This document shows, piece by piece, positions 26,872 to 32,902 of a stretch of 43,656 nt of DNA. The notes beneath the pieces are model-generated. The model was not told the DNA's origin and ran no database searches. It worked only from the letters and a program-made list of their open reading frames with translations. Every line of letters starts with the position of its first letter. Position 1 is the first letter of the stretch. This DNA comes from Vicinamibacteria bacterium (GTDB lineage: Bacteria; Acidobacteriota; Vicinamibacteria; Vicinamibacterales; UBA8438). The stretch is from the NCBI GenBank assembly GCA_022820675.1, contig JAJEFC010000107.1, positions 1-43,656 on the forward strand, written 5' to 3'. The position numbers and the translations under genes are program-made.

Positions 26872-27313
26872 TTCGGGTCTCACCCAGGCGGAAGCGGACG
26901 CGCTCATCGCGTTGGAGAAGCGCCGGGTTGGCGAGGAGGAGTGGCACTATCCCGACTTGGGCGGAGCAATCACGATTCCGCTGGTGTCGACGGACCGGCG
27001 TGAGCCGTTCCTTCTGGATCTGCGACGGTCACGGATCGATCTCGCCAAGAACACGTACCAGAACCGCGGGCGGCAGACAGTAGTCCTTGTGCGACTGGAC
27101 TTGGGCGCCAGGCCGCATCGCAACCCGGATGGGGAGGAGGTCGGTTCGCCACATCTTCACCTCTACCGCGAGGGCTTCGGCGACAAGTGGGCGTACGGTC
27201 CGCCGACGGATCGGTTCGTCGATTTGGAGGATCCCTGGCGGACCCTTCAGGATTTCATGCAGTTCTGCCGTGTCGTCGAGGCGCCGATCATCCAACGGGG
27301 GTTGTTCACATGA
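26864..27313 (+). CDS. DUF6978-like protein
   Basis: A 149-residue protein: [21 protein letters not shown], then [84 protein letters not shown], ending [20 protein letters not shown] recognise the 'F.LDI.R..I.L.K.T.Q.R.R....L.RLD' and 'PHLH.Y.EG.GDKWA' blocks from a family recorded as DUF6978, usually encoded beside DUF1828/DUF1829 proteins, as here. Function is unknown. ATG 26864 overlaps the previous stop by eight bases, and its own stop overlaps the next ATG, so all three are coupled. Confidence 0.75.
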
Positions 27314-28073
27314 TGGGGGAAGTGCAGGCGTTGCTGGATCAGTACCGGACCTGGCTGCGTGACAAGACGACCCTGCGCCAGGTCGATGAGTGGATCGAAA
27401 TCACCACACCGTACCTGGATCGCCACAACGACTGCCTTCAGATCTACGCCAGGCGCGCCGACGGGGGGTTCGTGCTGACGGACGACGGCTACATCATCGA
27501 GGACCTGGAACAGTCCGGCTGCAGAATCGACGGCGGCCGGCGGCGGGCCTTGCTCGACACGACGCTCAACGGCTTCGGCGTGCAGATCAACAAGACCGCC
27601 CTCGAGGTGCGGGCGTCGAGCGACAACTTCGCGCTGCGAAAGCACAATCTGATCCAGGCAATGCTCGCCGTGAACGATCTCTTTTACCTGGCGTCGTCGG
27701 GCGATCGCCAGCCCGTGTTCCACGAGGACGTGGTGGCCTGGCTGGATTTCGCGGAGATCCGATACACGCCCAACGCGAAGTTCACCGGCAAGAGCGGCTA
27801 TGACCACCGGTTCGACTTCGTGATACCGAAGTCGAGAGACCAGCCGGAGCGCGTGCTGCGCGCCATCAATCGCCCAGGTCGTGACACCGCGCAGTCGGTG
27901 GCGTTCTCCTGGATCGACACCCGGGAGGTGCGTGCTCCCGACTCCCGCGCCTATGCGATTCTGAATGACTCAGAACGGCCGGTCTCGGCGAGTGTGCTGG
28001 GCGCCATGCGCAGCTATGACGTGCGACCCATCCCGTGGTCGGACCGAGAGGGAGCGCGTGAGGAGTTGGCGGC

Positions 28074-28077
<4 letters not shown>
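27310..28077 (+). CDS. DUF1828 and DUF1829 domain protein
   Basis: A 255-residue protein. Residues about 28-120 match DUF1828: [45 protein letters not shown]...[13 protein letters not shown]. Residues about 155-240 match DUF1829: ARYTPN-like [38 protein letters not shown]...[11 protein letters not shown]. Neither domain has a known function; the fold pair is found in accessory regions of many bacteria. ATG 27310 overlaps the DUF6978 stop (ATGA) and the gene's own stop overlaps the hsdR GTG (GTGA). The chain places it firmly inside the restriction operon. Confidence 0.85.
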
Positions 28078-31259
<3,182 letters not shown>

Positions 31260-31341
31260 CTCGGAGCCGCTGCACGCTGGTGACGCCGATGTACGGTGGC
31301 GGCTTGAAGCGGTTGGCCGTCGCGTTGCATCGGGCGGGCGG

Positions 31342-31394
31342 CTTGATCGGGCGACCGATCAGGAATATGTTCCTGATTGGTCGAGCCAATCAGG
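31342..31394 (+). promoter_or_regulatory. Leader with three mutually overlapping hairpins
   Basis: H1: CTTGATCGG (31342-31350) with CCGATCAGG (31355-31363) around a GCGA tetraloop, one G-U pair. H2: ATCAGGAA (31358-31365) with TTCCTGAT (31370-31377) around TATG. H3: CCTGATTGG (31372-31380) with CCAATCAGG (31386-31394) around TCGAG. H2 shares bases with both neighbours, so H1+H3 and H2 exclude each other. The 3' arm of H3 runs into AGGAG (31392-31396), the only Shine-Dalgarno-like sequence before ATG 31408. The position suggests attenuation or an operator array for the ATPase gene. Confidence 0.55.
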
Positions 31395-31407
31395 AGCCAG
31401 CTCCCGC

Positions 31408-32561
31408 ATGAGCTTCGCCAGAACCCTCACCATGGACTTGCCGGCGGGCCAGTCCGCCTTTCTGTGGGGCGCCCGGCAGACCGGGAAGTCGACCTTCCTC
31501 CGCGAGCGGTTTCCGGCCGGCGTGCACATCGACCTGCTGGACTTCGACACCCGGCTCGCCCTGAGCGCGCGCCCGTCCCGGCTCGGCGAGCAACTGGACG
31601 CGGCCGCCCCGGAGGTCCTCGCGCACCCGGTCGTCATCGACGAAATCCAGAAGGCGCCGGGGCTCCTCGACGAGGTGCACCGGCTGATCGAGTCCCGCCG
31701 CCTGTCCTTTGTGCTGTGCGGGTCGAGCGCCCGGAAGCTCAAGCGCGCCGGCGTCAACCTGCTCGGCGGGCGCGCCTGGCGCTTCGAGATGTTCCCGCTC
31801 ACCTGGCGGGAAATACCCGACTTCGACCTGCTGCGCGCCCTGAACCGCGGCCTGCTGCCGGGCGTCTACACCCGGCCGCAGTACCGGCGGTCGCTGGCGG
31901 CCTACGTGCGGGACTATCTGACGCAAGAGGTCTTCAACGAGGCGCTCACCCGCAACGCCGCCGCCTTCACCCGGTTCTTCGAGGCGTTGCGCTTCTGTCA
32001 CGGCGAGTTGCTGAACTACGCGGCCATCGCCCGCGACTGCGGCGTCGACGCCAAGACCGTGCGCACGTACTTCGAGATACTGCAGGACACGCTGGTCGGC
32101 TATCTGATCCGCCCCTTCCACCACCGCCCCGGCCGCCAGAGCATCTCCGCCGCGCCGAGGTTCTATCTGTTCGACGTGGGCGTGGCCGGCCACGTCTGCC
32201 GCAGGGTCCTCACGGACGCCGCGGCACGGAGTTCGGCCGGGCGTTCGAGCACTTCCTCCTGCTCGAGATCATCGCCGCCCGCGGCTACCGGGAGCAGTCG
32301 TGGCCCGTCGAGTTCTGGCGGACCAAGAGCGGGCTGGAGGTGGACTTCGTGCTGAACGAGGGCGAGGTCGCGGTCGAGGCGAAGGCCCGCGTGCGCGGCG
32401 GCGACCTGCGCCCGATGACCGCCTTCGTGGAGGAGTTCGCCCCGCGCCGGGCGATCGTCGTCACCGCCGAGAACGACCGCCGACGCGTCGGCGGCATCGA
32501 CGTCATGCCCTACACCGAGTTTCTGGAACTGCTGCACGGCGGGACGCTGCTCGAATGCTGA
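31408..32561 (+). pseudogene. DUF4143-type AAA ATPase, frameshifted near the C-terminal domain
   Basis: From ATG 31408 the frame reads SFARTLTMDLPAGQSAFLWGARQTGKSTFL (Walker A at 21-28), then VVIDEIQKAPGLLDEVHRLI (Walker B near 75-80) and LCGSSARKLKRAGVNLLGGRAW. It continues through AAYVRDYLTQEVF...[32 protein letters not shown] to [20 protein letters not shown]. The expected continuation, [55 protein letters not shown], is in another frame ending at 32561. A single-base loss near 32210-32225 accounts for it. The C-terminal part is the PD-(D/E)xK-like domain of these ATPases. Intact length would be about 384 residues. The family is common in accessory DNA; its role is unknown. A sequencing error is not excluded. 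Confidence 0.85.
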
Positions 32562-32598
32562 AGCTGGTCGGCCCGGGCCACCGCCCATCACCCGGCGT

Positions 32599-32700
32599 CC
32601 GGAGGAACCTCGCCGTCGAGCTGCTGCAGAGACTGCTGAAGGGCGAATTGGCGACCCGGAGGCGGAAGAACGTCGTGCGGGCGCGCCCGTTCGCCGAGAT
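32599..32700 (+). pseudogene. 102-bp relic of hsdR
   Basis: These bases repeat 30752-30853 of hsdR at a constant offset of 1847 with about ten differences, encoding [34 protein letters not shown]. It starts 38 bases after the ATPase frame and has no start or continuation. It is a fragment of a second hsdR-like gene or a short duplication. Confidence 0.88.
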
Positions 32701-32808: not shown

Positions 32809-32902
32809 TGGCGGTGATGCAGGGATTCGAACCCTGGGAAGAGGTTTATGCCCCTTCAACGGTTTAGCAAACCGCCGCCTTCAGCCTCTCGGCCACCTCA
32901 CC
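32809..32902 (-). tRNA. tRNA-Ser (GCT)
   Basis: The minus strand from 32902 starts GGTGAGGTGGCCGAGAGGC and carries the anticodon arm GCGGT-TTGCTAA-ACCGT (anticodon GCT at 32866-32868), a long variable arm typical of class II serine tRNAs, and the T arm CAGGG-TTCGAAT-CCCTG (32820-32836). Discriminator G and an encoded CCA (32809-32811) close it. The acceptor stem has one G-A mismatch at pair 6-67. It sits between the hsdR relic and the protease genes, a common place for island boundaries, but no integrase is present. Confidence 0.93.

What the first reader, a model, noticed from the sequence alone, without database searches (positions are those of the whole stretch)
31342..31407. Three overlapping alternative hairpins covering the ribosome-binding site
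H1 with a GCGA tetraloop, H2 and H3 share arms, so H2 excludes both H1 and H3. H3 pairs into the AGGAG before ATG 31408. This is the architecture of a translational attenuator or of a protein-regulated leader. It could alternatively be a set of operators, since CCTGAT/ATCAGG recurs four times.
Basis: seen in the sequence. Interest (0 to 1): 0.6.

Follow-up and report, generated by a model that had tools for sequence, protein, structure and literature searches.

The report
Self-binding promoter array of mobile ATPase
The stacked hairpins are really a row of four DNA binding sites laid over the promoter of a very widespread but unstudied candidate anti-phage gene, and the gene's own protein very probably binds them to control its own production.

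Summary
In 79 relatives of the downstream AAA_14-DUF4143 ATPase, from many phyla, the same ~60 bp aligns without an indel: four alternating 15-bp half-sites (A1>, <B1, A2>, <B2; consensus AACTAWTYNGGAGTA; repeat period 31 bp). A sigma70-type promoter sits on them at fixed register, with the -10 on the first dyad and the ribosome-binding site and start codon in the second palindrome. The 5' half-site is therefore predicted to be untranscribed. Half-sites differ between genes but co-vary within each gene. Half-site position 7 tracks residue 215, the first residue of the protein's winged-HTH recognition helix: Ser goes with T (38/38), Ala with C or A (32/34). This is the top of 5,760 residue-position pairs, with at least 12 changes on the tree. 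The window fits (Ala215; C in all four half-sites). Best reading: each gene carries a private operator array read by its own protein, for autoregulation, probably repression. The protein combines a STAND-like ATPase, a winged helix and a PD-(D/E)XK nuclease, and matches PADLOC PDC-S01, reported as the fourth commonest defence (candidate) in prokaryotes. No binding experiment or mapped transcription start exists.

The parts
31343..31348 (+). -35 box TTGATC
   Evidence: In 61 non-redundant relatives the TTGACA match peaks exactly here (3.28/6 vs about 1.4 elsewhere); 17-bp spacer to the -10.
31353..31367 (+). half-site A1 (GACCGATCAGGAATA)
   Evidence: Indel-free alignment of 79 leaders; co-varies with the other half-sites; its position 7 follows residue 215 although predicted untranscribed.
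31366..31371 (+). -10 box TATGTT on the dyad of operator 1
   Evidence: TATAAT match peaks at this register (4.16/6).
31368..31382 (-). half-site B1 (TGTTCCTGATTGGTC, inverted)
31377..31380 (+). predicted transcription start (about 7 nt after the -10)
   Evidence: Inference from conserved promoter register; not mapped.
31384..31398 (+). half-site A2 (AGCCAATCAGGAGCC), contains the Shine-Dalgarno AGGAG 31392-31396
31399..31413 (-). half-site B2 (AGCTCCCGCATGAGC, inverted, weakest copy), overlaps the start codon
   Evidence: TCC core conserved in relatives; position 7 is C as in the other three.
31408..32561 (+). AAA_14-DUF4143 ATPase / winged helix / PD-(D/E)XK gene, frame-shifted here by a 1-bp length difference near 32220
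   Evidence: Pfam AAA_14 and DUF4143 split over two frames; the sister-genome copy L121 is intact, 384 aa; PADLOC PDC-S01 E 2e-44.
32017..32088 (+). codons 204-227: helix-turn-helix that is proposed to read the half-sites; residue 215 (Ala) = first residue of the recognition helix
   Evidence: AlphaFold helices 204-211 and 215-227; protein-DNA covariation; fold like CodY/ArsR/MarR DNA-binding domains.
31336..32568 (+). unit of homology shared with the sister genome at a differently arranged site: promoter-operator + ORF
   Evidence: blastn L121 vs window 97.6% from 31336 to 32568, flanks not collinear.

Best explanation
The element is a promoter-embedded operator array for autoregulation. Four alternating half-sites form two tandem 30-bp palindromes with a 31-bp repeat (three helical turns). 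They cover the -10 box, the transcription start, the ribosome-binding site and the start codon. The encoded AAA_14-DUF4143 protein (STAND-like ATPase, winged helix, PD-(D/E)XK nuclease domain; PDC-S01) binds these half-sites with its own winged helix, probably as dimers or higher oligomers, blocks RNA polymerase and keeps its own level low. Each copy carries a private version of the array matched to its recognition helix, so copies (about 38 in this genome) should not cross-regulate, and promoter-operator plus ORF can be inherited horizontally as a self-contained unit. Shown by computation: architecture, conservation, covariation, protein-DNA covariation, predicted folds, unit boundaries. Inferred: that the covariation means direct binding, the transcription start, repression rather than activation, oligomeric state, and the biological purpose (safe dosage of a candidate defence nuclease).
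For: Indel-free ~60-bp array in 79 leaders from many phyla. Promoter at fixed register. All six half-site comparisons co-vary beyond permutation (z 3.9 to 9.5), mostly at positions 7 and 8. Residue 215 x position 7 is the best of 5,760 residue-position pairs (z 11.3), and four of the top five pairs involve residues 205-215 of the HTH. At least 12 and 13 changes on a tree built without the HTH columns; 5.8 of 6 independent supported pairs go the same way, none opposite. The rule holds in each of the four half-sites separately and in the window. Winged helix modelled in a model of mean pLDDT 91, and the isolated domain resembles CodY, ArsR and MarR DNA-binding domains. In the three chromosomes where the array was detected, it lies once, at the gene's own promoter; the window's palindrome occurs once in its genome. 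Paralogues in the same genome have their own different palindromes at the same place (17 of 35 at or above the control 95th percentile, p 1.7e-6).
Against: No binding, footprint or expression data. The transcription start is predicted, not mapped. Only 6 independent pairs lie on strongly supported branches (p 0.03). Half-site B2 is weak. H2 and H3 lean slightly to G.T over A.C mismatches (91 vs 68), so a minor RNA role of the A2:B2 hairpin over the ribosome-binding site is not excluded. The window's own gene copy is frame-shifted, so this particular array may no longer be served by its own protein.
Confidence: 0.85

Rival explanations
1. RNA-level control: alternative hairpins in the leader switch access to the ribosome-binding site (attenuator or protein-bound leader).
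For: Mutually exclusive strong hairpins; H3 and the A2:B2 stem touch the Shine-Dalgarno.
Against: Predicted start lies inside B1, so H1 and the H2 5' arm are absent from the RNA; H1 not conserved; no indels in loops; no clear G.U asymmetry; predicted transcripts fold weakly (mean z -0.68); A1, predicted untranscribed, obeys the same residue-215 rule; no Rfam family reaches its cut-off.
Confidence: 0.07
2. The array is the end of a mobile element or a recombination site bound by the encoded ATPase-nuclease, with promoter control secondary.
For: Homology between close relatives in different genomes starts at the operator or -35 and often ends exactly at the stop codon; neighbouring integrases or transposases on some plasmids.
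Against: No matching half-site at the 3' end or elsewhere in the loci (9 hits vs 13 for the reversed control); a core promoter is conserved at fixed register in the array, which an element end would not need.
Confidence: 0.15
3. The array is bound by another host regulator, for example one controlling many defence genes.
For: Host regulators that control defence islands are known (RptR, PMC12255303, abstract seen).
Against: Array sequence varies with the gene's own recognition helix, not with the host; conserved across phyla; found only at the own gene.
Confidence: 0.04

Closest known systems
PADLOC phage-defence candidate PDC-S01 (AAA_14-DUF4143, COG1373)
   Same: The encoded protein matches several PDC-S01 profiles (best E 2e-44): ATPase fused to PD-(D/E)XK.
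   Different: The papers found (PMC12988326, PMC13356809) report its abundance and evolution; no operator, DNA target or regulation was found in them.
Controller (C) proteins of restriction-modification systems and their C-boxes (from general knowledge)
   Same: Tandem palindromes over the gene's own promoter, sequence private to each system, autoregulation of a DNA-acting system.
   Different: C proteins are small separate regulators; here the DNA reader is a domain of the ATPase-nuclease itself, with a winged helix.
STAND ATPases (archaeal SSO1545/PABY2304, NLRs, CED-4, Avs5)
   Same: The model aligns over the ATPase and winged-helix domains: 2qen Z 14.7, rmsd 3.3, 241 aligned; 2fna Z 14.4, rmsd 3.2, 242 aligned.
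   Different: Carries a C-terminal PD-(D/E)XK domain and no obvious repeat sensor; its winged helix appears to read specific DNA.
CodY / ArsR / MarR winged-helix repressors
   Same: The isolated domain resembles the CodY DNA-binding domain (2b0l Z 9.5, rmsd 2.8, 91 aligned) and ArsR/MarR repressors.
   Different: About 10-18% identity; attached to an ATPase-nuclease.

Membership tests
AAA_14-DUF4143 / PADLOC PDC-S01 | profile match over the protein | tested here: met
   Pfam AAA_14 2.8e-19 and DUF4143 3.5e-15 above cut-off in the window; PDC-S01 2.4e-44 for the intact sister copy.
AAA_14-DUF4143 / PADLOC PDC-S01 | intact Walker A/B and PD-(D/E)XK residues | tested here: met
   G26 K27, D78 E79, D313 and E324 invariant and K326 at least 90% in 61 relatives; the window copy is frame-shifted before the nuclease part.
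AAA_14-DUF4143 / PADLOC PDC-S01 | anti-phage activity | not testable with these tools
   Unvalidated in the literature found (PMC12988326).
Autoregulatory operator array | inverted half-sites overlapping the core promoter of the regulator's own gene | tested here: met
Autoregulatory operator array | site sequence co-varies with the DNA-reading residues of the protein | tested here: met
Autoregulatory operator array | protein binds the sites and changes promoter activity | not testable with these tools
   Needs gel shift and reporter assays.
RNA attenuator / regulated mRNA leader | alternative hairpins lie within the transcript | tested here: inconclusive
   Promoter register puts H1 and half of H2 upstream of the start, but no start has been mapped.
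RNA attenuator / regulated mRNA leader | compensatory changes with G-U tolerance on the sense strand | tested here: inconclusive
   Covariation is strong, but G.T vs A.C mismatches are near equal.
STAND ATPase | ATPase-helical-winged-helix fold | tested here: met
   (Z 13-15 to 2qen, 2fna, RPP1)
STAND ATPase | ligand-gated oligomerisation through a sensor domain | not tested
   No assay or complex prediction made.
Restriction-modification controller (C) protein system | small separate HTH regulator gene within an R-M operon | tested here: not met

The most novel reading that the evidence does not exclude
A STAND-type ATPase-nuclease stands guard on its own promoter: its winged helix holds the protein on the array in a resting state, and an invader that disturbs binding, transcription or nucleotide state releases both expression and nuclease activity. 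Operator and gene travel as one self-insulating defence cassette that evolves new private specificities through a few recognition-helix residues.
Probability: 0.2. Interest if true: 0.88.

Novelty: new variant of a known kind. Interest (0 to 1): 0.74.

Why it matters
PDC-S01 was reported as the fourth commonest defence across prokaryotes (29,494 bacterial and 9,986 archaeal instances, PMC12988326), with no mechanism found in the literature held here; a full-text search of 5.39 million open papers finds DUF4143 in one paper. This analysis gives the family a predicted DNA target, a predicted reading residue and a one-residue recognition rule that can be tested in simple binding assays. It also suggests how dozens of copies could coexist in one genome without cross-regulation and how a single gene can carry its own control into a new host.

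Tried and rejected
RNA attenuator (see rivals). A REP-type dispersed repeat: rejected, the palindrome occurs once in the genome. Rfam families: two sub-threshold hits only. Operator elsewhere in genomes: a strict consensus pattern found nothing in 297 genomes of the phylum or in viral contigs, which is uninformative because private sequences differ; with 3 mismatches in 12 genomes only the own-gene sites and unrelated chance palindromes appeared. Solved homologue by sequence: none. NCBIfam: no model. Matching half-sites at the 3' end of the unit: none. Paper searches for AAA_14 and for autorepressing STAND ATPases gave nothing on this family.

Full report
OBSERVATION. The three hairpins exist where stated and the region folds far better than shuffles (z -5.4 for 31335-31415; z -4.2 for 31260-31420). 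Two details needed correction: CCTGAT/ATCAGG occurs three times, not four, and a fourth pairing, GGAGC-CA-GCTCC at 31393-31404, was missed.

GENE. ATG 31408 opens an AAA_14-DUF4143 protein. The window copy is frame-shifted near 32220 by a 1-bp length difference; the copy of a sister genome (L121, same genus) is intact with 384 residues. Either a pseudogene or an assembly error is possible. The genome holds about 38 such genes.

ARCHITECTURE ACROSS RELATIVES. Relatives at 53-79% identity were fetched from many phyla. Their leaders align over about 60 bp with no gap: A1 (positions 0-14), inverted B1 (15-29), one spacer base, A2 (31-45), inverted B2 (46-60). Four of the fetched leaders that did not carry the array clearly (L051, L084, L087, L119) were left out of the statistics. 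Dyads lie at 14.5, 30 and 45.5, so the repeat period is 31 bp. Adjacent pairings A1:B1, B1:A2 and A2:B2 give alternative hairpins. H1 pairs the -35 region with A1, is broken in the nearest orthologue and is not seen in other relatives.

PROMOTER. Among 61 non-redundant leaders the -35 match peaks 10 bp before the array and the -10 match at positions 13-18, with a 17-bp spacer. In the window these are TTGATC 31343-31348 and TATGTT 31366-31371, giving a start near 31377-31380 (inference). A1 is then not transcribed. Some Bacteroidota relatives (for example L079, L112) carry a TAnnTTTG-like element over A1 instead (by eye).

RNA OR DNA. Predicted transcripts fold with mean z -0.68; the whole array, were it transcribed, would give -3.85. 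Mismatches show no clear G.U bias. The invariant geometry also argues for DNA.

COVARIATION. All six comparisons between half-sites exceed permutation (z 3.9-9.5), concentrated at positions 7 and 8, just 5' of the GGA core. Permutation does not remove relatedness, so the next tests matter more.

PROTEIN-DNA RULE. Mutual information between each protein column and each half-site position (75 genes, effective number 46) puts residue 215 x position 7 first (z 11.3): Ser with T in 38/38, Ala with C or A in 32/34. Residues 205 and 214 follow with positions 7 and 10. AlphaFold (mean pLDDT 91) places 204-211 and 215-227 as the two helices of a helix-turn-helix, with 215 at the start of the recognition helix. 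On a tree built without these columns, residue 215 changes at least 12 times and position 7 at least 13 times; on supported branches 5.8 of 6 independent pairs go the same way and none the other. The rule holds in each half-site alone, A1 included, and the window has Ala215 with C in all four. One pair at 81% protein identity (L072/L076) shows Ala/Ser together with AATGGA/TTCGGA.

FOLD. The whole model aligns with STAND-type ATPases (2qen Z 14.7, 2fna Z 14.4, plant NLRs, CED-4, Avs5). The isolated winged helix resembles CodY (Z 9.5) and ArsR/MarR repressors. D313, E324 and K326 of the PD-(D/E)XK motif are conserved. PADLOC names the family PDC-S01.

SPECIFICITY AND GENERALITY. In the three chromosomes where the array was detected it lies once, at the own gene; other weak matches lie in unrelated places. 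In the window's genome, 17 of 35 DUF4143 paralogues have palindromes at or above the 95th percentile of 2,636 control windows, just before their start codons, each different in sequence. Another subfamily shares CCTTGCAA-N18-TTGCAAGG-ATG in this genome and on Bosea and Acidithiobacillus plasmids.

UNIT. Between close relatives in different genomes, DNA homology begins at the operator or -35 and often ends exactly at the stop codon (L074/L075 vs L094/L100: -1 and 0; L073/L080: -10 and +1). For the window the unit is 31336-32568. How it moves is unknown.

LITERATURE. DUF4143 occurs in one open paper, where a Thermus gene of this type is among those induced by plasmid DNA (PMC4406477). PDC-S01 is described as the fourth commonest defence and unvalidated (PMC12988326). 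No report of an operator or DNA target was found.

VERDICT. The step not shown is binding itself.

Noticed in passing
32599-32700 (copy of 30752-30853): A 102-bp, 93% identical remnant of the upstream hsdR gene lies just behind the ATPase gene. In the sister genome (L150) a larger truncated second hsdR begins exactly at the end of the ATPase unit, so the unit sits between an intact and a decayed hsdR.
   Followed up: partly
G000 whole genome; G000:C165: About 38 DUF4143 ATPase genes in one genome, four of them within 13 kb of contig C165.
   Followed up: no
L004, L007, L014, L159, L160: Another subfamily of these ATPases has its own conserved palindrome CCTTGCAA-N18-TTGCAAGG ending directly at the ATG, with a -10-like CATAAT inside: possibly leaderless transcripts.
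   Followed up: partly
L008: One paralogue has a 97-bp imperfect palindrome over its start (score 22 vs shuffle maximum 10).
   Followed up: no
L105: A member with half-sites of a different outer sequence (GATTTAAACGGAGTA) in at least three tandem copies before the gene.
   Followed up: no
32809-32902 (- strand): tRNA-Ser (GCT) gene 250 bp behind the ATPase gene, a possible insertion hot spot.
   Followed up: no
27187-28077: DUF1828/DUF1829 gene directly upstream of and overlapping hsdR.
   Followed up: no
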